From: Bacillus sp. FJAT-22090
GTDB lineage: Bacteria > Bacillota > Bacilli > Bacillales_A > Planococcaceae
Direction: 5' to 3'
Assembly (NCBI RefSeq): GCF_001278755.1
Contig: NZ_CP012601.1
Coordinates: 1,426,001-1,490,000, forward strand
DNA: 64,000 bases
A model generated the notes under the pieces. It ran no database searches. It saw only the letters and a list, made by a program, of their open reading frames with translations, and was not told the origin of the DNA. Of this stretch, positions 30,662-58,633 are shown piece by piece (position 1 is the first letter of the stretch; each line of letters opens with the position of its first letter). The position numbers and the translations under genes were made by a program.

Positions 30662-30730
30662 TTATTATATACAATAACATAGTTGAACTGTATTAAGATG
30701 TATTATTATCGCTAAATCCTTGTAATATCA
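30662..30730. repeat. attL, 69-bp direct repeat
   Basis: Identical over 69 bp to 58565-58633, with similarity continuing a few bases past a single mismatch. The right end carries an inverted pair CCTTG-TAATAT-CAAGG (30718-30733), a plausible integrase core site. It begins 5 bp upstream of the ypgQ start. Confidence 0.92.
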
Positions 30731-30791
30731 AGGTTTTTGTAGAAACACTAATAATAATACAATGCAAGATAAAGCATAAAAAAGCAGGTTA

Positions 30792-30822
30792 TTGGGGCTA
30801 ATTGGGGCTAAAATTGGGGCTA
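30792..30822 (+). repeat. Three TTGGGGCTA repeats, probable integrase arm sites at attL
   Basis: TTGGGGCTA at 30792, 30802 and 30814 (spacings 10 and 12). The same 9-mer occurs twice, 12 bp apart, at the attR side (58488 and 58500) inside the integrase 3' end. Short direct repeats near both ends are what arm-binding tyrosine integrases use. Confidence 0.8.
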
Positions 30823-30876
30823 AAGAAAATAATAAATGGCGGCGTATGTACAGGAATGTGTAAGTGTAATTTGAAA

Positions 30877-30902
30877 AAAAGCACCTCATTAAGAGGTGCT
30901 TT
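30877..30902 (-). terminator. Terminator following the groEL 3' relic
   Basis: GCACCTC/GAGGTGC stem extended by A-T pairs, 5-nt loop, T7 on the minus strand. It sits where a groEL operon terminator would lie relative to the relic stop codon. Confidence 0.8.
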
Positions 30903-30934
30903 AAATATAAATCAGGATGATATATTTATTACAT

Positions 30935-30960
30935 CATGCCGCCCATCACCCATTACCATA
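30935..30960 (-). pseudogene. Last codons of groEL, integration scar
   Basis: On the minus strand the frame reads V-M-G-G-M-M followed by TAA TAA, the typical GroEL C-terminal tail, then a groEL-style terminator. No other groEL sequence is present upstream. The simplest reading is a leftover attachment site of an element that integrates at the 3' end of groEL and carries the end of the gene. The tail is short, so chance similarity is possible. Confidence 0.6.
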
Positions 30961-31045
30961 AATACGAAAGAATACAACTAAAAATCCCACCAGAATAAGG
31001 GTTTTACAAATTTATTGTTCGTATCTTTATATGGAAAAATAAAAA

Positions 31046-31065
31046 AAGTGGTCAAAAAAGTGGTC
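31046..31065 (+). repeat. AAGTGGTC pair, 12 bp apart
   Basis: AAGTGGTC at 31046 and 31058. Spacing and position (about 100 bp from the groEL relic) copy the arm-site geometry of the present element, suggesting arm sites of a different, lost integrase. Confidence 0.6.
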
Positions 31066-31105
31066 GCGGTTTTTAATATCGTAAATCTAAACAACAAATT
31101 TTTTT

Positions 31106-31155
31106 AAGGTTACGTCTTTACAGAGCACCTAAAATAGGTGCAATTAACCTTTTTG
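31106..31155. other. Nested hairpin with T tail, unexplained
   Basis: AAGGTTA (31106) pairs with TAACCTT (31145) and encloses GCACCT/AGGTGC (31125/31136), followed on plus by T5. It overlaps the 3' end of a 40-codon minus-strand frame (31118-31240) that has AGGAGG but no standard start codon. Confidence 0.55.
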
Positions 31156-31240
31156 GCAAGAGACCTTCACACGGGCCTGTATGAGTGATTGCGACCCATG
31201 AAACGGCACGGAAATTTCGATTGTTGTTAATACTTAATAT
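31118..31240 (-). other. Candidate 40-codon frame with non-AUG start
   Basis: AGGAGG at 31246-31251 is followed after 5 nt by ATA (31240), opening 40 codons to TAA at 31118. The product would contain NNNRNFRAVSWVAITHTG and end LIAPILGAL. An in-frame TAG lies inside the ribosome site, so it cannot start further up. It could be a leader peptide, a decayed gene or noncoding RNA. Nothing else was found in 31241-31402. Confidence 0.3.
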
Positions 31241-31402
31241 GTATACCTCCTATCACTCAAAGTAATAAATAGGTAGAATAGAATCATCTGGACATTGTGG
31301 TAGCTTTCATTAGTTATACTCAAAATCTAAAAGCATCCTTCGTTAAAAAAGCTTATGGGAAATTAATTTCCTTTAAGTCGCATTGAAATACCTTAGTTAA
31401 GT

Positions 31403-31840
31403 TTATTTTATTTCCATGTGAAAAGTAGGGGAAATCTTAATTTTCATTTGATAATCATTCCATATTGCATTTGCATTTGCATTTTTAGCAGTTATTCCAC
31501 CCAACCTTAATTCATCTGCAAGTTCAAGGCGCAAGCGTTCCACTCCTATTTTTTTATATCTTTTAACTCGGGAAGGTGCATAGTCCAGAGCAAGTAAGGA
31601 AGTAAGAAAGAAATCAGGAATAAGTTCTTTATAATCAACTCGATTGATATCAGCAATTCTTTCTCCTTCGATTGTACTAATAATTATTTCATTCTCCAGA
31701 AAGCAAAAACTATACGATTTAGTATCAAAGTGAATCAAAAAATCAGGGTTATAATAGGTTTTTATCTGTTCTTGGATAATGTGACCAAAAAAATTGGAAA
31801 ATTTCCTTGAAGCCTTTTCATCAACAGATAATTGAACCAT
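31403..31840 (-). CDS. Unknown 145-aa protein, partner of the 861-aa putative nuclease
   Basis: ATG 31840 is chosen because GGGGGTG lies 6 nt upstream; 31855 has no site. The product (MVQLSVDEKASRKFSNFFG... ending PTFHMEIK) is soluble, with an alpha/beta pattern, a run FCFLENEIIISTIEG and a helical RVKRYKKIGVERLRLELADELRLG. No catalytic motif or known family is recognised. It starts 20 bp past the large gene and has no promoter of its own, so they form one operon. A role as regulator, antitoxin-like inhibitor or specificity subunit of the large protein is conjecture. Confidence 0.75.
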   Translation of the reverse strand: MVQLSVDEKASRKFSNFFGHIIQEQIKTYYNPDFLIHFDTKSYSFCFLENEIIISTIEGERIADINRVDYKELIPDFFLTSLLALDYAPSRVKRYKKIGVERLRLELADELRLGGITAKNANANAIWNDYQMKIKISPTFHMEIK

Positions 31841-31860
31841 ATGAAACACCCCCATGTTTT

Positions 31861-34446
31861 TTAGTAATCCTTAAAGGAATCAGTTACTTTCTTCGTGTCT
31901 AGGTTCCTGTTTTCTTCAAGGTCCTTATCCAACGACTTTTTAAAGATTTTATCGATTTCATCCTTGTTTATTATTTCCCTAGTTAGTAATAATATGAGCT
32001 GTTCATAGAAAAGGTTCCTGTTGGAATGTATATGCTCAGCATTCTTTCTGTACGACTCATGAAGGTATAGAAGACAATCAACATCTAAAAAAACAGGCTT
32101 TGTATTATAGTCTTCACCTAACACTTCATTGAAAAAATCCCTCATTCCGTTTTTTTGTGGTTCTTGGAATCTATTTGAAACGAAAATGTGTGCCGTTAAT
32201 TCTTTTTTGTCACTATAGTTAATGACATATTCGTTATCATTCAATTTCTCAACATATTCTACGGCTTTCCGCTTTTCCTCCCTTTTCAAATCGTAACCTA
32301 CTTCACTCCTAGTAAATTTACAGTCATATGAAAAAACTCTTCTAAGGTCACCTTTTCTTTCATTTTTAGCTGAAATAGCGAAAATTCCTTCTGGATAAGC
32401 TTTGCCGCTTTTTTCTTTCCCCCATTTTTCCCCATTCGGAACTAAATCCTTTAGTAGAGCGAACACGTCATCTTCAAAAATCTTATCATTATATGAAGAA
32501 TCAATCTCATTTGGCTCTCCAAGAGTTTTCTTAACAGAGATATAAGCAAGGTCAGCGGACTCGGCTATTTTTGTCTTTGACTGGAGCTTGATGCTTTCAA
32601 CATTATCGTGGTAGTGGCTCAATAGATCCTGTTGATTGGATAAATAGATTTTTCCAAAGTTAATCGGATAAACGCCTTGGTCCCTAAGCGATTGAATCGT
32701 TTCTTCTACCATACCTACAGTTATTATAAGTGTTGGAATCATCATAGTTGAAAGTCGTTTAATAAAAGAAGGACGAATATAATCACTTGTAATAAATAAT
32801 TGGATCATTTCATTCGTTTCATGATTATGGTAGCTAATAAACTTATGCTTTTCATCGTTAATATTAATTGTGGATGACTTAGGATTATCCGTATAGCCGA
32901 GCGACTTAAATAAAAGGTTGAATTGCTTTTTTGTTACTGCGGTAACAGTATTTATATCCACTTCTATACTGGTACTCCTTTTAGTAAAACACTCAGTGTT
33001 TCCGCACTCGCAATTAAAAGAAGCGGTATCATAAGTGAAATCACCAACGTCTGTCACATCACCACACGACTTACAAGTAAGGATTAAACTCTGTCTTTCT
33101 CTAATTAATTTTTTGGAAACCAATTCATCAAAAAGTGACTGGTCTTCAGTTGATAATACTATAGGATTAGATAAGGACATAAGATAATCAAGCTTGTCTA
33201 TTTTTCCTTCAAAAAATCCATAATTAGAAATCTCCTGAAACAAAGGAATTCCAAACAAACTGTGGAATTCGTTTTTAAAACTCAGTTTCAATTCGTTATC
33301 CATTCGGCTATCATCAAATGAAAAAATTACATTACCATTCGGTAATATGTTACTACGTATTAGTCTTTTTTTACTTTCTAGCTGGGCCATAATATTTTCT
33401 ATGTCTTTGATGCTTCTTATACTCAGTATATTTTTTCGTTGTGCGTCAACTATTGAAGGCCATATACTTTCATTTTCAAGTTCTATGGATACTTTTGGGC
33501 TTCGTTTTAGCAAGCTGCTCCGGAATGAAATTTTAGTAACTAAAAGGTCAGAAGTTTTCTCCTTTGAAACTGATTCACCAGTCAAAAATGCATTAGTAAT
33601 TGCTGTTGGATCATATTTTGTATATACACCTGTTTGTACTTTCGACGTTTTAACTGAATAGGTATCCTCTAGATATGAAACAATGTGTCCCTCGTCTGTC
33701 TTGTTTGCTCCTTTTAATTCAACTATATTTTCTTCCGAGTCTATCCTCAAGAGAATAGAGGAAACTTCTTTATTTCTTATAGCCCTATCAAAGTCGGGTC
33801 TAGGACTGTCATTAACCTGTTTGTAAATATTTAAAATCAATTCTTTCTTATCCAATAAAAAATATGAATGAATTTTAAAGTGATTACTCTTCATTGATTT
33901 TAAGAAAAGCTTATCTGAAAAAGTAGTTTTATACTCAGATGTGAGTTTTAGAATATTTGTAAAAGAAATTTTTTTGTTGAATGTATGTACACTTCCAGAA
34001 CCTTTTTCGTTCCACTGAAAGTATGTAAACGCCTCCATTAACAATTTTGGTGAGGTAAGAAATAAGCATTTAACCTTAGCTAAAGAAGATTGAAGATTAA
34101 TCTGGCCCGGAGCCTTCAAACTATATATCTCATCAATTGCACGCTTTTTTCGATTTAAAAAATCTTGCAACAATAAGATTTCTTTTTTGCAAATTTTATC
34201 CAGAATCCTAAATTTAGAAACCATATTTTCTTTTGAAATATCGGTTTCTGTTTCAACTTGATAAAGTCCAGCGAGTTCTTTCATATTATCGACAGTCATT
34301 CTATTTAATAAGGCATCTAACCGAAGATTCATCATAGACTCATCTTTAGATAAATCTTCGATTAAATCTACTGCAGTACCCAACTCCCGCCAATAGTCCG
34401 AATTAACTTCGGAGTGGGAAAAGTAATTTAGTAAAGTCAATTTCAT
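31861..34446 (-). CDS. Large unknown protein with zinc ribbon and PD-(D/E)XK-like domain
   Basis: About 861 residues. GTG 34449 and TTG 34440 are alternative starts; GAGGTGAT spaced best for TTG. Residues 1-120 are helical. The centre is mixed, with a Cys cluster CxxC (about 459/462) and CxCxxxxC (about 480-487), a likely zinc ribbon. Near the C terminus: Glu at about 659 (FEDDVFALL), PEG at about 686 and YDCKFT at about 708-713 (D-x-K), spaced as in PD-(D/E)XK nucleases, then a helical end. No Walker motif, so no ATP motor. I know no named family with this order. Its place in a defence-rich satellite suggests a phage-defence effector. Confidence 0.75.
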   Translation of the reverse strand: MKLTLLNYFSHSEVNSDYWRELGTAVDLIEDLSKDESMMNLRLDALLNRMTVDNMKELAGLYQVETETDISKENMVSKFRILDKICKKEILLLQDFLNRKKRAIDEIYSLKAPGQINLQSSLAKVKCLFLTSPKLLMEAFTYFQWNEKGSGSVHTFNKKISFTNILKLTSEYKTTFSDKLFLKSMKSNHFKIHSYFLLDKKELILNIYKQVNDSPRPDFDRAIRNKEVSSILLRIDSEENIVELKGANKTDEGHIVSYLEDTYSVKTSKVQTGVYTKYDPTAITNAFLTGESVSKEKTSDLLVTKISFRSSLLKRSPKVSIELENESIWPSIVDAQRKNILSIRSIKDIENIMAQLESKKRLIRSNILPNGNVIFSFDDSRMDNELKLSFKNEFHSLFGIPLFQEISNYGFFEGKIDKLDYLMSLSNPIVLSTEDQSLFDELVSKKLIRERQSLILTCKSCGDVTDVGDFTYDTASFNCECGNTECFTKRSTSIEVDINTVTAVTKKQFNLLFKSLGYTDNPKSSTININDEKHKFISYHNHETNEMIQLFITSDYIRPSFIKRLSTMMIPTLIITVGMVEETIQSLRDQGVYPINFGKIYLSNQQDLLSHYHDNVESIKLQSKTKIAESADLAYISVKKTLGEPNEIDSSYNDKIFEDDVFALLKDLVPNGEKWGKEKSGKAYPEGIFAISAKNERKGDLRRVFSYDCKFTRSEVGYDLKREEKRKAVEYVEKLNDNEYVINYSDKKELTAHIFVSNRFQEPQKNGMRDFFNEVLGEDYNTKPVFLDVDCLLYLHESYRKNAEHIHSNRNLFYEQLILLLTREIINKDEIDKIFKKSLDKDLEENRNLDTKKVTDSFKDY

Positions 34447-34627
34447 CACCTCGAATAAATTTTCAGTTTATTCTATTTTATCTTACTACCTTTGACAAAT
34501 AAACAAAAATTTACAGTAGGGGTAAAAACTTGTCGAAAACAGAGGAAGCGATAGACGTGTTAGGGCTGATAGGATTAATGACACCTTCAATTTATTTAGA
34601 GTGCCTGATTTAGTCGCCTCTTCCTCC

Positions 34628-34906: not shown

Positions 34907-35128
34907 TTATTTGCTTTCATTTTTAAAATCAATTATCTCACGTATATCCTCGAGTTCAAAAACCTCCGCTATTTTGCATATCGCTTCCTTTGATATTCTT
35001 TCTTGCTTGTTGTTAACTAATTCAGAAATAGTTCGTGTGGACAATCCAGTTAATTTAGATAATTCCTGATAAGTCATCTTGTGATTTAATAACAATCGTT
35101 GTAATTTAATTTCTATTTCACGAACCAT
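34907..35128 (-). CDS. XRE-family HTH regulator, short
   Basis: A 73-residue Cro/C1-type DNA-binding protein: MTYQELSKLTGLSTRTISELV is the helix-turn-helix (about 18-38, trimmed here to LSKLTGLSTRTISEL), followed by the usual fourth and fifth helices (ISKEAICKIAEVFELEDI). It is divergent from the FtsK-like gene, with 260 bp between, and probably controls that module. Confidence 0.88.
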   Translation of the reverse strand: MVREIEIKLQRLLLNHKMTYQELSKLTGLSTRTISELVNNKQERISKEAICKIAEVFELEDIREIIDFKNESK

Positions 35129-35388: not shown

Positions 35389-36660
35389 ATGATATTTGAA
35401 ATTCTGACTACAACTTTTATGGGTGGAATTGCGTTGAAGGCATACGTAAAAAAACAAGGACTCGTGACTAATGACAACGGAAAAATTCAACGAATTATCT
35501 CGTTGAGCGGATTAAATGTAACGGATGGAAAAGATACGCTTACAACTCAATTAATCCGAAAGAAACAGCATGATTGGGGGTGGGAATATAAATATCGCAT
35601 TCCGCTTGGACGTAGTTTTAATGATTATTTAAACAAAATAGATACCTTACAAGATGGGATTAATAACAGGCGAAAACGTATTACATTTGCAGATTTAAAG
35701 TCACTTAATTTTGACGGGAATGTCATCCTGCAACTGCAAGATCTGTGGAAGAAAAAGCTGAGTGAAACAAAAGAAATTGAATTGGATTTTGACGGATTAT
35801 TAATTATTCGCATCTATGACAAACCAATACTAAAACAGATTCATTGGAATGAAAGTCTTTTGAAGCGTGGTACGTGGTCAGTACCAATCGGATTTACACG
35901 AAATGGGGATATTATTTGGCACGACTTTGATAAATCAAAACATCTAATCATCGCCGGGGCAACAGGATATGGCAAGAGTGCTATTTTGAAACTCATTACA
36001 ACATTACTGATCGACCAACAATCTGAAAACGCAGAGTTATCATTAATCGATTTAAAGGGCGGTTCTGCCTTCCACAGATTCAGAAATTGCAAGCAAGTAA
36101 AATACTACTCACGTGACCCTAAAGAGGCTGAAGAAGTCTTGGAAGCTATTCAAACTGATATGAACAAATCATTTATAAATGTTGTTGATAACGGTTTTGA
36201 AGATGTTAAAGAAGCTGGATTAAAAAAACGTCATATCATCATCATAGATGAAGCGGCAGATTTAGCTGAATACGGAAAAGCAATGGCCATTATCACAGAT
36301 ATTGCTAGGCGAGGACGTTCAGCTGGCTATTACCTCATTTTTTGTACCCAATACCCGACGGCTCAAGTCATACCGTCACAAACTAAAAGAAATATTATAG
36401 CTCGTTTATGCTATGTTGTTGATACAGATACAGCATCGAGAGTGGTACTTGATGAAAGCGGAGCTGACAAATTGCCCGACATTCCAGGTCGAGGAATATA
36501 TAAGAACAATGTAAAACGATATATCGTGCAATCACCTTTTATTTCAAATAAAACAATTCAACAACGAATTGAACCTCACATTTTGAAGGAGGTATATCGT
36601 GACAGTGAAACAATTGAGTCAACGAGAAGAACAAATACTGTTACTTTTGAAGAAATTTGA
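35389..36660 (+). CDS. FtsK/SpoIIIE-type ATPase, coupling-protein-like
   Basis: A 423-residue soluble motor. The Walker A is AGATGYGKSAILK (about residue 190), Walker B HIIIIDEAADLAEYG (about 285), then ARRGRSAGYYLIFCTQYP with the sensor/arginine region. It lacks the transmembrane part and gamma domain of chromosomal FtsK. Such proteins act as DNA-pumping coupling proteins in integrative conjugative elements (for example ConQ of ICEBs1) and on plasmids. Its end overlaps the Replic_Relax gene by 62 bp. Confidence 0.88.
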   Translation: MIFEILTTTFMGGIALKAYVKKQGLVTNDNGKIQRIISLSGLNVTDGKDTLTTQLIRKKQHDWGWEYKYRIPLGRSFNDYLNKIDTLQDGINNRRKRITFADLKSLNFDGNVILQLQDLWKKKLSETKEIELDFDGLLIIRIYDKPILKQIHWNESLLKRGTWSVPIGFTRNGDIIWHDFDKSKHLIIAGATGYGKSAILKLITTLLIDQQSENAELSLIDLKGGSAFHRFRNCKQVKYYSRDPKEAEEVLEAIQTDMNKSFINVVDNGFEDVKEAGLKKRHIIIIDEAADLAEYGKAMAIITDIARRGRSAGYYLIFCTQYPTAQVIPSQTKRNIIARLCYVVDTDTASRVVLDESGADKLPDIPGRGIYKNNVKRYIVQSPFISNKTIQQRIEPHILKEVYRDSETIESTRRTNTVTFEEI

Positions 36661-37192
36661 CTTCATGACACGTGACCAACTCAATCAATACTTTAAATTA
36701 GGCACGGTTCGTAATACGAATTATGTTTTACGAAACTTATCGGAGCACCTTATGAGCATTCGTGAAGGTTATCAAACTATTTATTATTTATCTAAAATTG
36801 GTCGTGATTATGTGGATTGTGACAAGATACGAAAAAAAGGAAATCATGTTCAGCATTTTGTTATGCGTAATCAATTTTGGTTGTTTTATAAATGTCCGAG
36901 AGATTGGAAAAACGAGGTCAAAATTTCGAACGGAAAAGCTTCAGTTGTCGCTGATGCAGTTTTCACAAGAAATGGATTTTATCACTTTTTAGAAGTCGAC
37001 AATTTGCAAGCGATGAAAGAGAACCGAGCGAAAATAATTCGTTACAAAAACCTATTAGAAAGCCTTATAATGCAATATGGATATCATCCAACACTTGTAT
37101 GGGTAACTACGACAGAATACCGTAGGAAGCAATTAGAACAGGTTTGTGGCGGTTTAAAGGTGAAGGTATATACAATTCACGACATTAAATAA
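36599..37192 (+). CDS. Replication-relaxation family protein
   Basis: A 197-residue protein from GTG 36599 (AAGGAGG at 7 nt). The N-terminal winged helix (MTVKQLSQREEQILLLLKKF, FMTRDQLNQYF) and a central HHxxxx-type core (HVQHFVMRNQFW, ADAVFTRNG, FLEVDN) match the Replic_Relax family of plasmids and mobile elements, thought to help relaxation or initiation of replication. Translationally linked with the FtsK-like gene. Confidence 0.85.
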   Translation: MTVKQLSQREEQILLLLKKFDFMTRDQLNQYFKLGTVRNTNYVLRNLSEHLMSIREGYQTIYYLSKIGRDYVDCDKIRKKGNHVQHFVMRNQFWLFYKCPRDWKNEVKISNGKASVVADAVFTRNGFYHFLEVDNLQAMKENRAKIIRYKNLLESLIMQYGYHPTLVWVTTTEYRRKQLEQVCGGLKVKVYTIHDIK

Positions 37193-37205: not shown

Positions 37206-37748
37206 GTGTTTAAAAAGAAACACAAAATAAATGTTGTACCTGAAAGTGAATATACAGATTTTAGCTATCGTGTGAAAGACGATGCTTATGCAACAAATAA
37301 AACGATTATAGGTGCTTCATTATTACCAACAACGGCAGCCATCGGACTTTCAATATACTCTCTAAACACTCCCGAAACTTACACTACAACAACTATCCCC
37401 GTAAACGCACCATTAACTACACCAATCAGTGAACCAGTCAATGTACTATCACCAGCATCAACTCTACCTGTTAACTTAACCTCCACACCTGAAATAATTC
37501 CTACAGGATTTATCGCAGATACTTCACTTGAAATGTTAGCAAACGTACTAGATCCATTAGTTCAAATAATGGTAGCAATTAGCTTTCCAATAGCAAGCGT
37601 CATTATGATTGGCGGCTGTTTCTTTTTCATGATAGGTAACTCCGAAAAGGCCTGGCAAACTATCATGAATGCAGGCTTAGGATATGTATTAATTCAGTTA
37701 TCTCCGCTGCTCTTACAGATTCTACGTGAAGTCGGGGAAGCTATTTAA
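37206..37748 (+). CDS. Membrane protein of the FtsK-like/Replic_Relax module
   Basis: A 180-residue protein with GTG start 37206 (GAGGAGG). A basic cytoplasmic start, a first hydrophobic segment (about 39-54), a Pro/Thr-rich extracellular stretch (about 55-105), and two C-terminal helices (about 118-140 and 150-172). The two-helix end resembles TrbC/VirB2-like pilin subunits, but there is no sequence proof. It is 13 bp from the previous gene, so the three form one operon. Confidence 0.65.
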   Translation: MFKKKHKINVVPESEYTDFSYRVKDDAYATNKTIIGASLLPTTAAIGLSIYSLNTPETYTTTTIPVNAPLTTPISEPVNVLSPASTLPVNLTSTPEIIPTGFIADTSLEMLANVLDPLVQIMVAISFPIASVIMIGGCFFFMIGNSEKAWQTIMNAGLGYVLIQLSPLLLQILREVGEAI

Positions 37749-45113: not shown

Positions 45114-45140
45114 AATTTTAAAAAGAAATGAGGTGAGTGT

Positions 45141-48100: not shown

Positions 48101-48191
48101 TCCTAAAAAACGATTAACGTACTGGAAATCAGTCAGACAAGCCTTTGATGACATGATGATTCAAGATATTATGCCATTGCAAAACAGGTAG
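45141..48191 (+). CDS. hsdR: Type I restriction endonuclease subunit HsdR
   Basis: A 1016-residue motor-nuclease. N-terminal PD-(D/E)XK nuclease: [23 protein letters not shown], trimmed to FDVTLLIN and IELKNRK. Translocase: [15 protein letters not shown] (Walker A, about 290), [10 protein letters not shown] (DEAD-like), FTGTPIF (motif III) and [16 protein letters not shown] plus QAFSRTNR (motifs V, VI). GAGGTGAGTG precedes the ATG. The locus looks intact, so the system should be active. Confidence 0.96.
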
Positions 48192-49184: not shown

Positions 49185-49343
49185 CTCGCAATACCTCCGT
49201 CTATAAAATAGGTTAACTTCTATATCTAATATTATAGACAAACTTATATACCGTTAGAACTCCTAAATTTAATGTTTAATTCACCAGTTTTTCTGTTGTA
49301 TATAAGTTAACACTTTTAGACAGCAGGACTTGTTATTAAGTAA

Positions 49344-51322: not shown

Positions 51323-51596
51323 TTTTTCTCTCCTTAGAAATTTTCCAGAAAATATATTCTTTTCATATTTACCCCTTATTTTTTCCCATAGAATACAGGT
51401 CCTCTCAAATATTAACAATATATTATCTAATTTCATATATGTAATTTCTCCCTTTTCCCATCTAATCTCCTTCTATAACCATAATGTTAACTTGGGTTTC
51501 ACGTAGAAAAAATTTTTGAATATCATATATTAATAGAAATGCTTTGCTTACTTTTTATCTTTAATGTTTTTTTTCATTACAACGGTATATTAAATA

Positions 51597-51656: not shown

Positions 51657-52154
51657 TTAATTACTCCACTTCACCAGATCTCCCATTTCCACTTTAATGA
51701 TACCCTTGTGCTCGTTTTTGAGTTCCACTCGTTCTCTCCATCTCTCGGGTTGACGATTCTTTAACCAAAATATTTGGGCGGTTACGTCAGGCGCTTGCGA
51801 CTTCATTACACGTTTTACTATTGCCATTTCTCCATCATTGCCCTTCCCCCATGTTTCCTCTTCATATCGGTATCCAATTGCACGCTTTAATAACGAATTC
51901 TCTACCTGTTCATCGATTACCTTCTTACCCTTCTTAAGGGCATCGGCAAACTCGGGAAATCGATCTTGCCATTCATACAATGTCGCAACATTAATCCCCA
52001 TTTTATGTGCAATTTGTTTGTTAATTAATCCATCTTCAGCCCATCCCTTCACTTGTGCTAATCCAACTTCAGTCAACCAATTTGTATAAAAGGGTTTTCG
52101 ACCGATTTTTTTTCTCTCTAGCGATTGCAGATCTCTGTGTTTCTCTAATTGCAT
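51657..52154 (-). CDS. Phage terminase small subunit-like protein
   Basis: A 165-residue protein. An N-terminal HTH (WAEDGLINKQIAHKMGINVATLYEW, trimmed to NKQIAHKMGINVATLYEW) is followed by DRFPEFADALKKGKKVIDEQ, LLKRAIGYRYEEETWG and APDVTAQIFWLKNRQPERW, the order typical of phage small-terminase-like proteins. In PICIs a TerS redirects packaging of the helper phage to island DNA. It is last in the minus-strand replication block, as in SaPIs, but sits 400 bp from the helicase. Confidence 0.8.
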   Translation of the reverse strand: MQLEKHRDLQSLERKKIGRKPFYTNWLTEVGLAQVKGWAEDGLINKQIAHKMGINVATLYEWQDRFPEFADALKKGKKVIDEQVENSLLKRAIGYRYEEETWGKGNDGEMAIVKRVMKSQAPDVTAQIFWLKNRQPERWRERVELKNEHKGIIKVEMGDLVKWSN

Positions 52155-52277: not shown

Positions 52278-52554
52278 GACTAGGTTTTTCACTTGAACCA
52301 TAAACCCCATGCTTTTTCAAATGCTTATATTATATATTTTTACATTTTTCATCCTAATGAGTTTACAACAAGTGGTTCAATTGGTTCAAATGCTTTTAAA
52401 ACTAAGAGAGAGTATGATGGAATACTGTTTATATAGGTGGTTCAATTATAATTATTATTGTAACTCGACGTAGAGATATCAATGCTTAAGCAAGCATTTC
52501 AGTTTTTCTTAAGTGGTTCAGTTTTCGGTTAAAGGTTGTTTAATTATAATGTTT
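52278..52554. repeat. Iteron-like repeats, candidate replication origin
   Basis: A non-coding AT-rich stretch with repeated GTGGTTCAATT-type units: about 52372, 52382 (TTGGTTCAAAT), 52437, 52513 (GTGGTTCAGTT), a degenerate one near 52533 and an inverted TTGAACC near 52282. The unit near 52437 is followed by ATAATTATTATTG, and the one near 52533 by ATAATG, so the units share flanks. It lies directly downstream of the helicase gene, where SaPI origins lie. Confidence 0.6.
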
Positions 52555-53874
52555 TCAATTGAGTGCGATTCCCACATAACAACGTTGTTTACCATGTGGT
52601 TTTGTGACCGATACGGGAAACCCAGTTTCTATCCGGTTGTAAAATTTTTTTAGTCCTATTGCCTTGTAACCGCTATTAAAGCACCAATTAGAATAATACC
52701 TATATAACAGTTGTCGTTCTATTATCCTGTTAGGAGATATTTTACAATTCTCATCTACAAAAGTCGCTACATTATCAATGTCTAATTTATATTCCTCTAG
52801 CATTTTATCTGTAGACTCGTTTAAAGTAAAGTGACCCTGTTTTTCTAACCATTCAAGACCATCCAATGCACGATTTAACAATCCACTCAATTCCTCGTCA
52901 TTTGTTAACTTGTCCATAATATTGGGATCTGCTTTAATTCCTCCTGGCCCGAACTTGTTATTAAAAGGAATTATTATCCACCTCCTGAAAAATCCATCAG
53001 TTAAATCTGAGGATCTAGGCAGTTCATTGGCAGAAAACAAAAGACGTGCAAAGTTTTGAAAATTAAAACTATCTTTTCCTTTAAATTCAGCGCTAGTACG
53101 GTCACCTGATACAACTGTTTTGAATACGCTCGACTTAACCAGCGCTTTAGATGGAATATCTGCATAAGTATTTGCTAACTTCCCATGAAGTTGAGCCAAT
53201 TTAAATCGGTTATGCTCAAGATCTTGTAATGAAATGTTGCTAATATTATCTGTTCCTAAAAATCTATGAAACAGCTCGATAAACTTAGATTTCCCATTAC
53301 TCCCCTCACCCGTTAACATCACTGCTTTTTCATATTTTGTTATTGGTAACATACAATATCCAAACCATTCATAAACTATTGACATTGTATCTTCTGGAAC
53401 CACACTTCTAAAAAAAGTATCAATATTTGGTGCAATAGCTTCAGGTTTAAAGTAAATCGGTATTTGAATGGTTGTGAAATATTCAGGAGTGTGCGGGTGT
53501 AACTTACGTTTCCTCCATTCAAGTAATCCGTTACTTACATTAATTAAATCAGTTCTAGCGTTAGCATTTTCTGTTTTACGAAAGGTTGTCACCTGTATAT
53601 AATGAACAACTTCGTCCCCATATGATTTTTTAAATCGGTCTTCCAGTAGTTCAGCACACTTTTTCCTAATTACATAGTCATTTATTATTCTGTAAACCCC
53701 TAATTCGTAGCGATACAGAAAGTTTCCATCGTAAATGAAATGGTTATCTTCCATGATGTGTTCTGCAAGAAGTTTGGAACTAAAAGTTTTACCGTTGTTC
53801 CCACCAAAATAATGTCTTTCATTAGTTGTTTTCTTATGTTCAAGAATAAATCTATCTAGATCCGACTCCCTCAT
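52555..53874 (-). CDS. SF3/P4-type replicative helicase (D5-like) of the island
   Basis: About 439 residues from ATG 53874 (an upstream ATG at 53901 is possible; AAGGGAAG precedes 53874). A D5_N-like N-terminal region is followed by the SF3 Walker A GEGSNGKSKFIELFHRFLG (trimmed to GEGSNGKSKF), Walker B-type KLANTYADIP, sensor FSANELPRSSDLTDGFFRRWIIIPF trimmed to FSANELPRSSD. It unwinds the origin during element replication. It overlaps the prim-pol gene by about 23 bp. Confidence 0.9.
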   Translation of the reverse strand: MRESDLDRFILEHKKTTNERHYFGGNNGKTFSSKLLAEHIMEDNHFIYDGNFLYRYELGVYRIINDYVIRKKCAELLEDRFKKSYGDEVVHYIQVTTFRKTENANARTDLINVSNGLLEWRKRKLHPHTPEYFTTIQIPIYFKPEAIAPNIDTFFRSVVPEDTMSIVYEWFGYCMLPITKYEKAVMLTGEGSNGKSKFIELFHRFLGTDNISNISLQDLEHNRFKLAQLHGKLANTYADIPSKALVKSSVFKTVVSGDRTSAEFKGKDSFNFQNFARLLFSANELPRSSDLTDGFFRRWIIIPFNNKFGPGGIKADPNIMDKLTNDEELSGLLNRALDGLEWLEKQGHFTLNESTDKMLEEYKLDIDNVATFVDENCKISPNRIIERQLLYRYYSNWCFNSGYKAIGLKKFYNRIETGFPVSVTKPHGKQRCYVGIALN

Positions 53875-54724
53875 ATTTATCACTTCCCTTCTTACGTTCA
53901 ATATCCTTCTTCAATATGGAGACAAATGTTTTGTTCAGTTCCTCCATACTTTGCGAAGGGTTACATCTTGTTTCATTCCATATTTTTATTAATTCATATG
54001 TGATATCAGCATCTACGTTCTTTCGAAGTAAGTAACCTATTAATGACGCAGTGGAATGGTTTCTCATACCTTCTCCTACACCTTGTAAAAGGTTGACGTA
54101 ATGGCTTGCAGGTTTCTTGTCATACTTGTGACCAGTATTATTAATAATTGTTTGTACGAGCCAATATGGGGCTTCCTGTATAGAAGTTTCTAACACATGA
54201 TGTTCTAATTCCCATGTATATTCTTTTCCACTTATATGCGAGCTAGGTGCTCCAATTATATATCCACCATCACTTCTTAAATCTAGTCCGGGTAAAAATT
54301 CAACCCCGTTTTTAATGTTGCTATTACACTTGAAAAAATAGTGGATTCCACCAGATCCCGATAACTGTACCGGTGTATGAGGGAGAACTTCAAAACTCTT
54401 CTCAAGTTCACGAACGGTATCATGTCCATCTACGTTTTTTTTCAAATCTACATCAAGTACAATTATTCCACTTGCTTCTCCACAAGCTATCCCTATATTT
54501 GCTTTAGGCCACTTAGTCCACCATTTTTTAATAATCGAGGTGTCAAAAGTTGCGTCTTTAACACCATTCTTTGTCAAAGGATGTTTACCTGGTTTACAAT
54601 TCACTTTTTTCCCCTTGCAGCTACATTGCCCGTTTTCTACCCAGTGTAAGGGGAGTACTTTCCACTCTAACTTTGTTGCATAAATAAATGCACTTTTCAT
54701 CATTTTGTTTTCTTCTAAAACCAT
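53852..54724 (-). CDS. Bifunctional primase-polymerase (prim-pol) of the island
   Basis: A 290-residue AEP-type primase. The catalytic DxD is in GIIVLDVDLK (about 83) and SxGxH in SGSGGIHYFFK; the zinc-like Cys cluster CSCKGKKVNCKPGKHP lies near residue 33. The C-terminal part is helical. Together with the SF3 helicase it is a self-sufficient initiation pair, as in SaPI pri/rep. The 5' leader is a near-copy of that upstream of the rha gene. Confidence 0.9.
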   Translation of the reverse strand: MVLEENKMMKSAFIYATKLEWKVLPLHWVENGQCSCKGKKVNCKPGKHPLTKNGVKDATFDTSIIKKWWTKWPKANIGIACGEASGIIVLDVDLKKNVDGHDTVRELEKSFEVLPHTPVQLSGSGGIHYFFKCNSNIKNGVEFLPGLDLRSDGGYIIGAPSSHISGKEYTWELEHHVLETSIQEAPYWLVQTIINNTGHKYDKKPASHYVNLLQGVGEGMRNHSTASLIGYLLRKNVDADITYELIKIWNETRCNPSQSMEELNKTFVSILKKDIERKKGSDKYEGVGSR

Positions 54725-54790
54725 TCATAGCACCCCCTACCCAGTCTTTATCTTGTCCGCACATAGCACGGTAGGCTTGGCAAATACTAT
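54718..54790. repeat. Direct repeat, copy 1 (leader of prim-pol)
   Basis: About 70 bp differing at only two positions from 55732-55804 (with weaker similarity extending about 40 bp). On the minus strand it ends at the prim-pol start codon and contains the ribosome site GGGGGTG; a possible stem CCTACC/GGTAGG spans it. Confidence 0.9.
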
Positions 54791-54923
54791 TATTAAAGTA
54801 GTTGCGATTAAGCGTTAGCTTGGTTCTATCGAATTGTATAAGGCTGTTCGTTCGCTAAAGTGTATATGTGTATGAATAGTTTGCTTTTATACGCTCTATC
54901 CTTTGATGTCATGATTTTCTTAA

Positions 54924-55604
54924 CTATTTTCGCCTTACCTCTCTAGGAAACCAATATTTTACATATTGAATAGCTGCTTTCAATTCTTTTCGCTTCACGT
55001 CTTTGTAAGAGCTAACACCGAAACGATCTTTAATTTCTCTGTGCAGCTCAGTATAAAGGGCTCGTCTTTGAACAGGCTTTAATTTATATTTGAGAACTCT
55101 AGAAAGAACTCTAGAGCTTATTGCAGACTGCAATCTACGTTGCTCACTGTGATCTAAAGTTATTTGACTTTGAACTTTATTTTTCAGATCTTGCATTTCT
55201 TCTTTCAGAAATTCGACTTCCTTTGATGTTTTGTGGGATAAGTTTATAGATTCTTTTAGTTGTTCATTCTCTAAAAGCAGCTTAGATTGAAGCTTTCCTC
55301 TTTCCATCTCGTCGAATCTCGTAACGTATGCTGCCGTAAATAGGAGACCTTTTTCCCCAGTCATTTTGTTAGCTACCAAGTGGCACCCTTTACGTGTGAT
55401 TAAGAAACAAGATACTGCCCGTCCTGTTTTATCTTTATATTTGCTCTCTATGAAAAAATCACTGAGGGCGAGATCGCCCTGAGTTAAATATTTTATATAA
55501 CCACGAATAGTTTTCATTAAACCGTTATGTTCACGTTGAATCATCTCAGCTACGTCACGGCTGTCTATTACGAGTTGTTCATTAATTACTTCTAATTGTT
55601 TCAT
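54924..55604 (-). CDS. Rha-family phage regulatory protein (antirepressor-like)
   Basis: A 226-residue protein. Residues 1-95 are the Rha domain: VIDSRDVAEMIQREHNGLMK, FIESKYKDKTGRAVSCFLITRKG (trimmed: FLITRKGCHLVANKMTGEKG). A coiled coil follows and the C-terminal ORF6C-like domain has RRLQSAISSRVLSRVL and LYTELHREIKDRFGVSSYKDV. Rha proteins modulate lysogeny and are common in PICIs. Transcribed toward prim-pol. Confidence 0.9.
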   Translation of the reverse strand: MKQLEVINEQLVIDSRDVAEMIQREHNGLMKTIRGYIKYLTQGDLALSDFFIESKYKDKTGRAVSCFLITRKGCHLVANKMTGEKGLLFTAAYVTRFDEMERGKLQSKLLLENEQLKESINLSHKTSKEVEFLKEEMQDLKNKVQSQITLDHSEQRRLQSAISSRVLSRVLKYKLKPVQRRALYTELHREIKDRFGVSSYKDVKRKELKAAIQYVKYWFPREVRRK

Positions 55605-55731
55605 CTTATTTCCCCCTCATTTATAAAATTGAAAGCAATAAACCTACAAGAGCAATCTAATGCCGTTTCATTGCATCAATTACCATCCAGAGCTCTAAAC
55701 TTCCAGGTACTTCTCTCTTTAAACATTCCTA

Positions 55732-55804
55732 AAACCATTCATACCACCCCCTACCCAGTCTTTATCTTGTCCGCACATCGCACGGTAGGCTTGGCAAATA
55801 CTTT
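55732..55804. repeat. Direct repeat, copy 2 (upstream of rha)
   Basis: Near-copy of 54718-54790. On the minus strand it is followed by a short frame (MVLGMFKERSTWKF...) with the same first three residues as prim-pol (MVL), so copy 2 looks like a duplicated prim-pol 5' end that kept the leader but not the gene. The remainder of the gap 55605-55948 shows only this and the 17-bp repeat. Confidence 0.9.
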
Positions 55805-55918
55805 TTGTAAAGTAAATGCAAATAAGTACTAGCTTGGTTTTAGCTATTTGTATCCATTGATACTAGGCTAAACCCTCTTACATTATTCAAAACCACTTTG
55901 ATTAAAACAATTCCCTTT

Positions 55919-55935
55919 TGCATACGCCATGCCAA
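55919..55935. repeat. 17-bp repeat TGCATACGCCATGCCAA, copy 1
   Basis: A perfect 17-bp match to 57300-57316. It contains an inverted GCAT...ATGC pair. It lies past the DUF771 stop codon. Confidence 0.7.
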
Positions 55936-55948
55936 ACGTTTTTTTGTA

Positions 55949-56218
55949 TTACCATTCATCAAGGATTACTAGAATAACGCTAATTGCTTCTTTGTATATC
56001 CACCATCTTTTACGGTCCTTTCGTCGTTCAATTATTTTCATACGTGGATCTCTTAATATCTGTTCCTCCAAATACCTAGGGCTCATTGAAGTAATTTCTG
56101 ACATTTTCTTCAAATCAATTAACAACAATGACTCTTGTATTTGCTGATCTAACTGTCTCTGAATGTAATCCCTTATAGCTGATTCATCGATATTTACCGA
56201 TACGTGTGCTGGAATCAT
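55949..56218 (-). CDS. DUF771-like phage/PICI protein
   Basis: About 89 residues from ATG 56218; the longer frame to 56251 would translate the AGGAGAAGGAGG ribosome site as GRRRRE. It is a small charged protein (MIPAHVSVNIDESAIRDYIQ) with LKKMSEITSMSPRYLEEQIL and a C-terminal RKRWWIYKEAIS, the winged-helix-like pattern of DUF771/excisionase-type regulators in SaPIs. It may act as excisionase or regulator. Confidence 0.65.
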   Translation of the reverse strand: MIPAHVSVNIDESAIRDYIQRQLDQQIQESLLLIDLKKMSEITSMSPRYLEEQILRDPRMKIIERRKDRKRWWIYKEAISVILVILDEW

Positions 56219-56465
56219 TTCCCTCCTTCTCCTTCCTTGTATGTTCATCAACCACTTTGATCAAAAAAATATCTTCAATGCCTGTACTAAGTCCATCAGA
56301 TAATTTTCTAGCAATTGTAGCAGATGGATATTTTTTCTCATTTATAACTTGAGATAAATATGAATGAGAAACTCCTATTTTCTGAGATACAGCTCTTAAT
56401 GTTAATCCCTTTTTAGCGATTAACAATTTTGTGTTAGAAGCATTTTTTAATCTGAATAGTATCAA
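56184..56465 (-). CDS. XRE-family regulator, lytic-side (Str/Cro-like)
   Basis: About 93 residues from TTG 56465 with AAAGGAGG at 9 nt; an upstream ATG at 56522 lies inside the promoter and operator, so it is not used. The HTH is LTLRAVSQKIGVSHSYLSQVI. It overlaps the DUF771 start by 35 bp in another frame. Divergent from the 217-aa repressor across a shared operator, like Str/Stl in SaPIs. Confidence 0.85.
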   Translation of the reverse strand: MILFRLKNASNTKLLIAKKGLTLRAVSQKIGVSHSYLSQVINEKKYPSATIARKLSDGLSTGIEDIFLIKVVDEHTRKEKEGNDSSTRIGKYR

Positions 56466-56490
56466 TTTGTACCACCTCCTTTCATAATTG

Positions 56491-56567
56491 ATCATATCAT
56501 TAAATTGGTTGATGTCAACCAATAAAATTAATTATTATTTGACCACCAACCATTTTTTATATAAACT
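56491..56567. promoter_or_regulatory. Divergent promoters with palindromic operator (genetic switch)
   Basis: Minus promoter: TTGACA (56513-56518), 16 bp, TATGAT (56491-56496). Its -35 lies in the palindrome ATTGGTTGA-TG-TCAACCAAT (56504-56523). Plus promoter: TTGACC (56539-56544), 17 bp, TAAACT (56562-56567), with a half-site ACCAACCAT beside its -35. A repressor bound at the palindrome would shut the minus strand first. Confidence 0.75.
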
Positions 56568-56597
56568 AGAGAAATACAACTGAAACGAGGAATTAGT

Positions 56598-57251
56598 ATG
56601 AAGTATTTAAAGTTAGGAGAAGTTATAGGAAAGGCAAGGAAGAAAAAAGGTATATCTTTAAGAGAGCTTTCTAGAAGAACAGGTATCTCTCACCCATACC
56701 TATCACAAATTGAAACAGGCAAGAATGATAGTCCTTCTTTAGAGTTTTTGGTTAAATTAGCCGAAGAGTTACAGCTACCTTTTGCATATTTACTTTGCAT
56801 TTCTTCTACAGAGATGGTGGAATTATCAGGCTTTATATCAAAAGATGTCATTGATAAATATAGATATTACATTCCACCTTTTATTCATAACTGGGATTCA
56901 GCTGATTCCTTTATTGAGTATGCTTTAATCGGAGAAATTAAAGAAAGACCTGATTATTATACGTACGAAAAAATAAAGGAAATTAAAAATTTCTTTTATG
57001 GAGTAAAATCATATGAAAAAGCATATGAAAAAATTATAAATCCAAAACCGAATGTTAGAAAATTACTTGAAGTACTTTTAAAAGAACCATCAACTCAAAC
57101 TACAAAAAAAATATTAAATAACGTTAAGCCAACAATCTCTTTAAAGGAATATCTTTTTTCAAAAAATATAGAGATAACGGTTGATGACAAAACACTATCT
57201 GATGAGGATAAATTAAAACTTGTTGAAATAGCTAATACTATTTTCAAATAA
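56598..57251 (+). CDS. XRE-family repressor (Stl/CI-like)
   Basis: A 217-residue regulator with an N-terminal HTH (ISLRELSRRTGISHPYLSQI, about 18-37) and a C-terminal domain of about 140 residues, without a Ser-Lys protease dyad that I can see, so it is not a RecA-cleaved CI. This fits Stl-type repressors that are lifted by a helper-phage protein. It precedes the integrase on the same strand, with 68 bp between. Confidence 0.85.
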   Translation: MKYLKLGEVIGKARKKKGISLRELSRRTGISHPYLSQIETGKNDSPSLEFLVKLAEELQLPFAYLLCISSTEMVELSGFISKDVIDKYRYYIPPFIHNWDSADSFIEYALIGEIKERPDYYTYEKIKEIKNFFYGVKSYEKAYEKIINPKPNVRKLLEVLLKEPSTQTTKKILNNVKPTISLKEYLFSKNIEITVDDKTLSDEDKLKLVEIANTIFK

Positions 57252-57299
57252 TAAAATTTAATACAAAAAGATAAACCGAATTATACTTACCTATTCATG

Positions 57300-57316
57300 T
57301 GCATACGCCATGCCAA
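57300..57316. repeat. 17-bp repeat TGCATACGCCATGCCAA, copy 2
   Basis: Perfect match to 55919-55935, just upstream of the integrase ATG at 57320. Confidence 0.7.
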
Positions 57317-57319
57317 GAA

Positions 57320-58516
57320 ATGGAATGGTATAAGTTGAAATTACACAAATCTAGTAAAGAACCTGAGATCTACTACTATTTCAATGTGAATGAAGAAAAA
57401 ATTTGGATGTATCGCCACAAGTATTATGACAAGTTAGGTAAACGAAAAGAGAAGAAAAAAAGTGGATTCAAAACAGAAAAAGAAGCCCTAAAATCACTTT
57501 TTGAAGTAAAAGCTGCAACATTACGTGGTGATTCTAAACAAGTGGAACACGACCAAATAACCGTTGCGGAATGGTTAGATATTTGGTATGAAACACATAA
57601 TACAGATTGGAAAGAAACCACTCGAGTGCACAGAGAATCAGTTATACGATTACACATTAAACCCTTAATAGGTCACCATAAGCTTCAGAAATTAGAAAGA
57701 AGTACTTATAAAAGGGATTTTTTAAATGTTCTGGAAGGAAAGTTTAATACCGCTTCTATAAAAACATTTCATAATATTTTTAAAATCGCTATTAATGCAG
57801 CTGTGGAAGATGAAATATTGCCACGTAATCGTTTTACTAAATTTACTTTTAGCTTTGCTGGAGAGAATGATATGGAACTAGAAAATTTTTATTCTCCCAG
57901 GGAGTTAGCTATATTTCTTAAATCTGCAAAAATGTCTTTGAGTATCACCAATTTTACTTACCTTTTAACCCTATCATATAGTGGTATGAGAAAAGGTGAA
58001 GCACTTGCGTTGCATTGGCGTCATATTGACTTAGAAAATAAGTCAATCACAATTGAAGGCACGAGGGACGAAAAAGGCTCGCGTACACCAAAGACAAAAA
58101 ACAGTTACAGAACTATATTAATCGATGATTTGCTAGTTAATCAATTAAAGATCTATCGTAGATGGTGTATAGAAGTCATGTTATCAAATGGTAAAAAGTT
58201 TACCGAAAATTCCATGGTATTTATTAGTGAGCGTACTGGAGAAGAAATTAGTGCCAATACTCCTCAGTATGCAATAAAAATGCTTCTAAATAAATACAAT
58301 TTGAAAAAAATAACGATTCATGGTCTTAGACATACACACTGTACCATCTTACTTAGTCAAGGAGTAAATGTAAAAGTCATCGCTGATCGATTGGGTAATA
58401 CTCCACAAATGATCATGAATGTATATAGTCACGTATTGACGGAATTAGAAACTAAGTCTGTCACTTTGTTTAGTCAAAGTTTAGAAATTGGGGCTATTTT
58501 TGGGGCTAGTGAATGA
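57320..58516 (+). CDS. int: Tyrosine recombinase / integrase of the island
   Basis: About 398 residues from ATG 57320 (GTG 57299 has no ribosome site). An N-terminal arm-binding domain (WMYRHKYYDKLGKRKEKKKSGF), the SAM-like core-binding domain (TVAEWLDIWYETH), then the catalytic domain with Arg in YSGMRKGEALALHW, HGLRHTH (H-x-x-R-H) and the nucleophile Tyr in MNVYSHVL. Its last codons encode two TTGGGGCTA repeats (58488, 58500). It ends 49 bp before attR. Confidence 0.95.
   Translation: MEWYKLKLHKSSKEPEIYYYFNVNEEKIWMYRHKYYDKLGKRKEKKKSGFKTEKEALKSLFEVKAATLRGDSKQVEHDQITVAEWLDIWYETHNTDWKETTRVHRESVIRLHIKPLIGHHKLQKLERSTYKRDFLNVLEGKFNTASIKTFHNIFKIAINAAVEDEILPRNRFTKFTFSFAGENDMELENFYSPRELAIFLKSAKMSLSITNFTYLLTLSYSGMRKGEALALHWRHIDLENKSITIEGTRDEKGSRTPKTKNSYRTILIDDLLVNQLKIYRRWCIEVMLSNGKKFTENSMVFISERTGEEISANTPQYAIKMLLNKYNLKKITIHGLRHTHCTILLSQGVNVKVIADRLGNTPQMIMNVYSHVLTELETKSVTLFSQSLEIGAIFGASE
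58488..58508 (+). repeat. Two TTGGGGCTA repeats at attR, inside int
   Basis: TTGGGGCTA at 58488 and 58500, 12 bp apart, translated as part of the integrase C terminus; the same 9-mer lies three times near attL. Confidence 0.8.
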
Positions 58517-58564
58517 ACTAACCCCTTTAATCCCCCGTAATACTGAACTTTTAACAAGGATTAA

Positions 58565-58633
58565 TTATTATATACAATAACATAGTTGAACTGTATTAAG
58601 ATGTATTATTATCGCTAAATCCTTGTAATATCA
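58565..58633. repeat. attR, 69-bp direct repeat
   Basis: Perfect copy of 30662-30730. The sequence beyond is host DNA upstream of a yjcZ-like gene. Confidence 0.92.

What the first reader, a model, noticed from the sequence alone, without database searches (positions are those of the whole stretch)
30662..58633. A 28-kb phage-satellite-like island loaded with defence genes
Seen: a perfect 69-bp direct repeat at the ends, int and a repressor on one strand, and XRE, DUF771, Rha, prim-pol, SF3 helicase, repeats and a TerS-like gene on the other, without structural genes. Known: this order is that of Gram-positive phage-inducible chromosomal islands. Inference: at 28 kb, with a type I RM system, a Cap4-like nuclease and an unknown large nuclease-like operon, it is about twice normal PICI size and acts as a portable defence island.
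Basis: partly seen in the sequence, partly recalled or inferred. Interest (0 to 1): 0.85.

Follow-up and report, generated by a model that had tools for sequence, protein, structure and literature searches.

The report
Hybrid phage satellite carrying antiphage genes
A 28-kb island in a relative of Bacillus looks like a phage satellite (a parasite of viruses) stitched together from two satellite lineages, and it carries several likely antiviral genes, among them an uncharacterised two-gene nuclease-like unit that recurs in other mobile DNA.

Summary
The island is real: a perfect 69-bp direct repeat (30662-30730 / 58565-58633) bounds 27.9 kb with the PICI order int-repressor | regulator-Rha-primase-helicase-TerS and no capsid, portal, tail or lysis gene. 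New support: arm-type repeats (TTGGGGCTA) inside both ends, iteron-like repeats between helicase and TerS, related elements in other Caryophanaceae and one IMG/VR contig, and a TerS shared with four of these in one clade (100/100) apart from 84 other rows. A satellite is the best reading; a decaying prophage is less likely. Mobility is untested; one TerL model found no helper in the host.

Int, repressor and regulator resemble L148; TerS and serine recombinase resemble G095/G090. An exact 18-bp groEL-type attachment core lies 199 bp inside the left end. The left third holds a phage-type FtsK/Replic_Relax/TM cassette.

The 'unknown nuclease operon' (31403-34449) recurs at 16 Bacillales loci, with the small gene behind the large one in 13. 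Neighbours include restriction genes, ShosA and, by reading, prophage lysis ends. A PD-(D/E)xK-like motif is invariant; no library tried has a model. It is a candidate new defence system, untested.

The parts
30662..30730 (.). attL: left copy of the 69-bp direct repeat, directly upstream of ypgQ
30791..30824 (+). three TTGGGGCTA arm-type repeats next to attL (integrase arm sites, inferred)
30929..30946 (-). exact groEL-type attachment core (TTACATCATGCCGCCCAT) of a second satellite/prophage lineage
31403..31855 (-). p150, small partner gene of the nuclease-like unit
31861..34449 (-). nuc862, large protein, zinc-ribbon-like cysteines (by reading) and PD-(D/E)xK-like C-terminus
34907..35128 (-). 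small XRE regulator; relatives stand beside the FtsK cassette in 7 of 18 viral contigs
35389..36660 (+). FtsK/SpoIIIE-like ATPase (phage type, phrog_1358)
36599..37192 (+). Replic_Relax protein (PF13814, phrog_2190)
37206..37748 (+). small protein of the same cassette, T4SS_pilin match below the Pfam cut-off (phrog_5422)
37815..38459 (+). HNH endonuclease
38927..40612 (+). Cap4-like endonuclease (PADLOC Effector, residues 1-284)
40819..41331 (-). ankyrin-repeat protein
41633..42007 (-). YolD-like protein
42317..48191 (+). type I restriction-modification hsdM-hsdS-hsdR
48600..49241 (-). serine recombinase; one follows TerS also in L148, G199, G090 and G095
49610..51436 (-). SbsC_C / beta-propeller protein between TerS and recombinase (cargo)
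51657..52154 (-). TerS, terminase small subunit, in a clade with four relatives
52370..52545 (+). iteron-like GTGGTTCAATT repeats (candidate origin)
52555..53901 (-). D5/SF3 helicase
53852..54724 (-). bifunctional primase-polymerase
54715..54839 (.). 125-bp repeat, copy 1, at the start of the primase gene (copy 2 at 55729-55853)
54924..55604 (-). Rha-type antirepressor
55729..55853 (.). 125-bp repeat, copy 2, upstream of rha
55949..56251 (-). small protein (phrog_14980), conserved in L148, G167 and G245
56184..56522 (-). cro-like XRE regulator
56598..57251 (+). stl/rpr-like XRE repressor
57299..58516 (+). tyrosine integrase; its 3' end contains two arm-type repeats (58487-58508)
58565..58633 (.). 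attR: right copy of the 69-bp direct repeat

Best explanation
The region is a Gram-positive PICI-type phage satellite of Caryophanaceae that arose by recombination between two satellite lineages and took up defence cargo behind TerS. Shown from sequence: the anatomy, the repeats, the absence of late genes, the relatives and the mosaic identities. Inferred: Int excises and integrates the element at the 69-bp site upstream of ypgQ; the divergent repressor keeps it silent until a helper phage arrives; primase and helicase replicate it from the iteron-like origin; its own TerS diverts a helper's large terminase so that satellite DNA is packaged. While resident it defends the cell with type I RM and probably the Cap4-like nuclease and the nuc862-p150 unit. 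The internal groEL-type core is the scar of a second, groEL-integrating element that supplied the left end.
For: PICI gene order with 69-bp repeat. Arm-type repeats inside both ends: 5 of the 6 plus-strand matches (up to one mismatch) in the 29.5 kb scanned, plus one on the minus strand; the same arms bound sibling G167's 17.3-kb element. None of 219 late ORFs from 27 viral contigs hits the island, whereas three prophage controls give 12, 6 and 9 hit clusters. Relatives L148, G199, G245, G167, G090, G095. TerS of window, L148, G199, G095 and G090 form one clade, 100/100, with a long stem. Mosaic: int/stl/cro/small protein 64/60/62/85% to L148; TerS/recombinase 74/82% to G095 and 68/76% to G090, against 64/38% to L148. 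Exact groEL core inside the left end, none in 100 shuffles, shared with other elements. PADLOC-recognised genes also in L148, G199 and G245.
Against: No induction, excision or packaging data. 27.9 kb exceeds the usual size. The host genome gave no large terminase with phrog_2, so no resident helper was seen; other TerL models were not searched. G199 carries a fragment of a large terminase and L148 a shorter trace, a sign that this lineage once came from a complete phage. PADLOC found nothing in the cargo proteins scanned from G090, G095 (2) and G167 (3). The late-gene set covers phages with related TerS only. No same-species empty site could be searched.
Confidence: 0.78

Rival explanations
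1. A defective prophage: a temperate phage lost its structural and lysis genes by deletion and the gap filled with defence genes; TerS, Rha, primase and the FtsK cassette are leftovers.
For: FtsK/Replic_Relax is found in phages (57 phage records; 18 viral contigs). nuc862-p150 sits, by reading, at prophage lysis ends. A TerL fragment persists in sibling G199.
Against: TerS groups with four relatives that also lack late genes by the same test. Their layout recurs in different genomes. The 23 ORFs taken as genes are open and both repeats perfect. In prophage contig L228 the cassette points towards the groEL core, in the island away from it.
Confidence: 0.14
2. An integrative mobilizable element: the FtsK-like ATPase acts as coupling protein and Replic_Relax as relaxase, so the island moves by conjugation and the phage-like genes are passengers.
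For: FtsK-like ATPase, Replic_Relax name and weak T4SS_pilin match; by reading, a HerA-like ATPase with small hydrophobic proteins in relative G090.
Against: The cassette lies in phages and prophage-like contigs. I see no HUH signature in the 16-sequence alignment summary and no other conjugation gene in the ORF list. The Replic_Relax fold could not be predicted.
Confidence: 0.04
3. Two satellites, or a satellite and a prophage, integrated in tandem and then fused by deletion; the island is an unresolved, possibly immobile, composite. This overlaps with the best explanation: it shares the hybrid origin and differs on whether the whole still moves, so the odds are not exclusive.
For: Internal groEL core unrelated to the terminal 69-bp att. 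A tandem of PICIs with unrelated internal att is on record (PMC10111431, passages seen).
Against: Only one groEL core is present, allowing two mismatches, and the terminal repeats and arm repeats are intact, so the whole unit should still excise.
Confidence: 0.3

Closest known systems
Gram-positive PICIs / SaPIs (PMC6092414, passages)
   Same: int and repressor on one strand, replication genes and TerS on the other, candidate origin behind the helicase, accessory genes at the TerS-distal end, no structural genes
   Different: 27.9 kb instead of about 15 kb; Rha and a D5-type helicase; hybrid with a second internal att core; lineage in Caryophanaceae; phage-type FtsK/Replic_Relax cassette
Streptococcus thermophilus satellites StCI (PMC13376191, passages)
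   Same: satellite without structural genes between direct repeats, with int and replication module; linked there to phage resistance
   Different: StCIs were defined as 7-20 kb; here a type I RM system is part of the cargo
Tandem PICI with unrelated internal att (PMC10111431, Fig. 5F, passages)
   Same: terminal att of one type, internal att of another
   Different: Enterobacterial PICIs at tRNA-Ile2 and fis; here ypgQ and groEL types, with only one internal core left
Bacillus phages with FtsK-Replic_Relax (e.g. Riggi, 019DV002) and viral contig L228
   Same: same gene pair; L228 also has the groEL core next to int
   Different: these are phages or prophage-like contigs; the cassette orientation relative to att differs in L228
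Cap4 (CBASS effector)
   Same: N-terminal endonuclease part matches the PADLOC Effector model (residues 1-284, E 2.9e-22)
   Different: no cyclase seen among the island ORFs; the C-terminal half does not match that model

Membership tests
Gram-positive PICI | int and rpr/stl in one direction; regulator, primase, helicase/rep in the other | tested here: met
   definition from passages of PMC6092414
Gram-positive PICI | no phage structural or lytic genes | tested here: met
   ORF inventory, PHROG scans of 18 of the 23 ORFs, late-gene test with controls
Gram-positive PICI | origin next to the replication genes | tested here: inconclusive
   iteron-like repeats at 52370-52545; function untested
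Gram-positive PICI | genes unique to PICIs | tested here: inconclusive
   TerS clade of five elements, 100/100, 89 rows kept of 94; the other rows were not checked one by one to be phages, and the other core genes were not treed
Gram-positive PICI | att site never used by prophages | tested here: inconclusive
   fhs-ypgQ adjacency in 7 of 18 congeners; what lies there in the other 11 was not examined except G003; the internal groEL core is used by viral contig L228
Gram-positive PICI | size about 15 kb | tested here: not met
   27.9 kb; given as typical, not obligatory, in PMC6092414
Gram-positive PICI | phage-dependent induction, interference and packaging | not testable with these tools
   needs helper phage and host
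Prophage | large terminase, portal, capsid, tail genes | tested here: not met
   phrog_2 gave no TerL in the whole host genome
ICE/IME | relaxase and (for ICE) conjugation apparatus | tested here: inconclusive
   Replic_Relax and FtsK-like proteins present but shared with phages; no T4SS set seen in the ORF list
CBASS | CD-NTase cyclase with Cap4 effector | tested here: not met
   only the Cap4-like N-terminus matches; no cyclase among the 20 island ORFs scanned with Pfam

The most novel reading that the evidence does not exclude
nuc862-p150 is an undescribed two-gene anti-phage system: a large PD-(D/E)xK-type nuclease with a small partner, traded between satellites, prophage lysis ends, restriction loci and perhaps a transposon of Bacillales. 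The island shows satellites growing by fusion: a groEL-type end was grafted onto a ypgQ-type satellite, giving an enlarged, multi-system defence carrier with a built-in groEL core that could receive further elements.
Probability: 0.42. Interest if true: 0.68.

Novelty: new variant of a known kind. Interest (0 to 1): 0.52.

Why it matters
It describes PICI-type satellites of Caryophanaceae with a TerS clade of their own and cargo behind TerS that, in three relatives, includes restriction, UvrD-helicase or SIR2-type genes. My one search for PICIs together with Bacillus and Lysinibacillus listed two papers, both on Macrococcus; that is no proof that none exists. It gives a concrete case of two satellite lineages recombining while both att signatures remain readable, which makes the question of how satellites grow past 15 kb and collect defence genes directly testable. 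It also points to an uncharacterised two-gene unit that can be assayed in Bacillus subtilis.

Tried and rejected
Same-species empty site: the genome search holds one genome per species, so congeners were used. The DNA search with the right flank mainly hit interspersed repeats; only its G003 att match is used. A 39-bp, 72% att match in G002 (E 1.7) was taken as chance. The first nuc862 searches with the single protein found nothing in viral contigs or genome contigs; alignment queries found 3 and 12. Six weak nuc862 hits in the family search were set aside as chance: the one that I read, in G246, is a GGDEF/EAL-type protein by reading; the other five were not read. PDB sequence searches of nuc862, Cap4-like, Replic_Relax and TerS gave nothing useful. 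Foldseek of the nuc862 model gave E. coli RdgC first (E 1.7e-5) but with TM-scores of 0.14 and 0.31 and rmsd 12, so I claim no homology. The paper 10.1093/nar/gkad123 is not held. That FtsK/Replic_Relax makes the island conjugative was considered and rejected as the leading view. In the TerS tree some rows came out wrong in my extraction: 5 of 94 dropped, 3 short rows with long branches kept; none is a satellite row. The late-gene set comes from contigs with related TerS only; stretches G163, G234, G199C4 and G003b, which hold the cassette, also gave no hit, so it cannot exclude unrelated late genes; the ORF inventory is the stronger argument.
Full report
What is there. The window lies in a 4.21-Mb single-contig genome. 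The family searched with it includes two genomes that agree in contig length with Planococcus sp. CPCC 101016 and Bhargavaea beijingensis, that is Caryophanaceae; the host genus itself is not named. A perfect 69-bp direct repeat (74 bp with one mismatch) sits at 30662 and 58565, 27,903 bp apart, with no third copy in the genome at E 0.001.

Are these the att sites? TTGGGGCTA-type repeats lie just inside both ends: 30791, 30801 and 30813 on the left, 58487 and 58499, in the last codons of int, on the right. These are 5 of 6 plus-strand matches with up to one mismatch in 29.5 kb; one further match is on the minus strand. In sibling G167, whose integrase is 60% identical, GGGGCTA occurs four times in 39 kb, in two pairs: 12092/12104 inside int, and 29153/29164, just inside the second copy of a 16-bp direct repeat at 12020/29297. 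That gives a 17.3-kb element. I read these as integrase arm sites (inference).

Empty site. In 7 of 18 congeners fhs lies about 65-140 bp from ypgQ without an insert. None of the seven has a recognisable 69-bp sequence (best 16 bp; a 39-bp 72% match at E 1.7 taken as chance). Only G003 keeps it (88% over 72 bp), near a broken int at 67% identity and an ORF that by reading is a truncated HNH relative. So the locus is variable and used by this kind of integrase, but a clean attB in the same species was not available. The other congeners' sites were not examined further.

Gene content. Right block: int 57299-58516 (+), stl-like repressor 56598-57251 (+), cro-like regulator, small protein (phrog_14980; Pfam gave no DUF771), Rha, prim-pol, D5/SF3 helicase, TerS (-). 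Between helicase and TerS, GTGGTTCAATT recurs at 52372, 52437 and 52513, with a weaker fourth copy at 52532. The whole window holds 8 matches with up to one mismatch, 3 of them in this 400-bp gap, against a mean of 2.1 in 100 shuffles, none reaching 8. This is where PICIs have their origin (PMC6092414, passages). A 125-bp sequence is repeated at 87% upstream of rha and at the start of prim-pol. Left of TerS lie a SbsC_C protein, a serine recombinase, type I RM, YolD, ankyrin protein, Cap4-like nuclease, HNH, the FtsK/Replic_Relax/TM cassette with a small XRE gene, and nuc862-p150. I found nothing structural or lytic; the largest gap is 672 bp.

Late-gene test. 219 ORFs downstream of TerS in 27 IMG/VR contigs gave no hit (E 1e-8) in the island, in L148, in the 13 prim-pol loci of the family, or in G090 and G095; prophages in G009, G089 and G196 gave 12, 6 and 9 hit clusters. 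The set covers contigs with related TerS only, and four cassette-bearing stretches (G163, G234, G199C4, G003b) also gave none.

Relatives. Prim-pol relatives occur in 13 of 261 family genomes, TerS relatives in 19 of 261, own included. L148 (16.1-kb IMG/VR contig) has int 64%, stl 60%, cro 62%, small protein 85%, prim-pol 41%, TerS 64%, a serine recombinase and type I RM. G199 has int, prim-pol, TerS 58%, serine recombinase, a UvrD-type helicase (best PADLOC models RTasHel and GajB), type I RM and the FtsK cassette. G245 has int 57%, small protein, prim-pol and a SIR2-type protein (best PADLOC model ThsA) at the contig end. G167 has int 60%, small protein, prim-pol and a Clp protease. G090 and G095 share TerS (68, 74%) and recombinase (76, 82%). 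PADLOC-recognised genes were found in L148, G199 and G245; none in the 3, 2 and 3 cargo proteins scanned from G090, G095 and G167. Cap4-like relatives are rare: own and 4 others of 261 genomes, one at full length, 48%.

Satellite or dead prophage? A TerS tree of 89 rows (94 given, 5 dropped) puts the five satellite TerS in one group, 100/100, on a long stem; inside it the window goes with G095 and G090, and L148 with G199. The other 84 rows are 76 from IMG/VR contigs, 3 from the control prophages and 5 from family genomes, 3 of these badly extracted; I did not check each to be a phage. A TerL N-terminal fragment (phrog_979, E 1.4e-8) persists in G199 behind TerS, and a shorter trace in L148. 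So the lineage probably descends from a phage but now exists as a satellite family. The host gave no TerL with phrog_2 (the model rings in 11 of 14 control genomes); other TerL models were not run, so a resident helper is not excluded.

Hybrid origin. TTACATCATGCCGCCCAT at 30929 is the core of elements at the groEL 3' end. Allowing one mismatch it occurs twice each in G090, G130, G139, G172 and G181, three times in G171, once in G199 next to int, and once in viral contig L228 between the cassette and int (groEL itself read beside G090's int). In the window it is exact and occurs once, with none in 100 shuffles. The presumed own groEL end is 2.4 Mb away (93% over 25-27 bases). The core sits at the far end from int, as in G090. 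Together with the split resemblance of the two blocks, this suggests that a ypgQ-type right end was joined to a groEL-type left end. A tandem PICI with an unrelated internal att is on record (PMC10111431, passages).

The FtsK cassette. Replic_Relax relatives occur in 57 phage records, in 18 viral contigs, all 18 with FtsK and 17 with the TM gene, and in 25 of 261 family genomes. In prophages it is an end module of unknown role. An alignment of 16 members shows me no HUH signature; the fold was not obtained.

nuc862-p150. The window's nuc862 matches nothing in Pfam, PADLOC, NCBIfam or PHROGs; p150 has one weak PADLOC hit (PDC-M03B, E 0.015). Over 13 relatives no Pfam family matches more than one member (best E 4.7e-4) and PADLOC gives one weak hit in one (PDC-S11, E 0.0023). 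I could not search papers for it by name, so 'undescribed' rests on these libraries. p150 follows directly in 13 of 16; not in Planococcus, Bhargavaea or L290. Neighbours: type I RM in L282 and L286, a weaker hsdM-like gene in L283, type IV restriction in L286 and a ShosA/PsyrA-like gene in L281; not all neighbours were scanned. By reading: prophage lysis or tail genes in G053, G045, L292 and L295, Vsr/Dcm-like genes in Bhargavaea, transposition-like genes in Planococcus. In L292 the unit lies beside YolD, FtsK and Replic_Relax. Over 13 sequences E659, P686-E687-G688 and D709-C710-K711 are invariant. The model (pLDDT 79, pTM 0.55) has helix 655-669 and strands 689-696 and 700-711 there, with a poorly modelled stretch 677-686 between; this is the layout of PD-(D/E)xK nucleases (recalled). 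Foldseek found no convincing whole-protein match; a type II restriction enzyme (Kpn2I, E 0.13) and Cap4 appear only far down.

Papers. I saw passages of PMC6092414, PMC10111431, PMC11389934 and PMC13376191 and search listings otherwise; none was read whole.

Conclusion. The element is larger and more mosaic than described. Function of the cargo and mobility are inferred.

Noticed in passing
window 58804-59250 and many sites in the genus: The intergenic DNA between attR and fhs contains dispersed repeats; all 18 congeners have a match to this flank, mostly in this part and at about 67-86% identity. Perhaps a repeat family of the genus.
   Followed up: no
L249 8182-11704 (G090): A groEL-site relative carries an 870-aa ATPase, HerA-like by reading (no Pfam match), with two small hydrophobic proteins, one pilin-like by reading, next to decayed FtsK/TM genes.
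   Followed up: partly
L247 1059-5144 (G095) and L249 186-1568 (G090): A 1361-aa protein with an N-terminal HTH and no other Pfam or PADLOC match sits between TerS and the serine recombinase in G095; by reading, a fragment of it lies in G090.
   Followed up: partly
L079 1424-2170 (G167): A 17.3-kb sibling satellite encodes a Clp-family protease (PF00574), perhaps a head protease relic.
   Followed up: no
L228 1451-6038: A prophage-like end with groEL core has the XRE gene, FtsK, Replic_Relax, TM and an actin-like ATPase (by reading) between lysis genes and int.
   Followed up: partly
window 54715-54839 and 55729-55853: Near-identical 125-bp leaders in front of prim-pol and rha; similar sequence lies in front of prim-pol in L148 and G199. 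A shared operator or control region is possible.
   Followed up: partly
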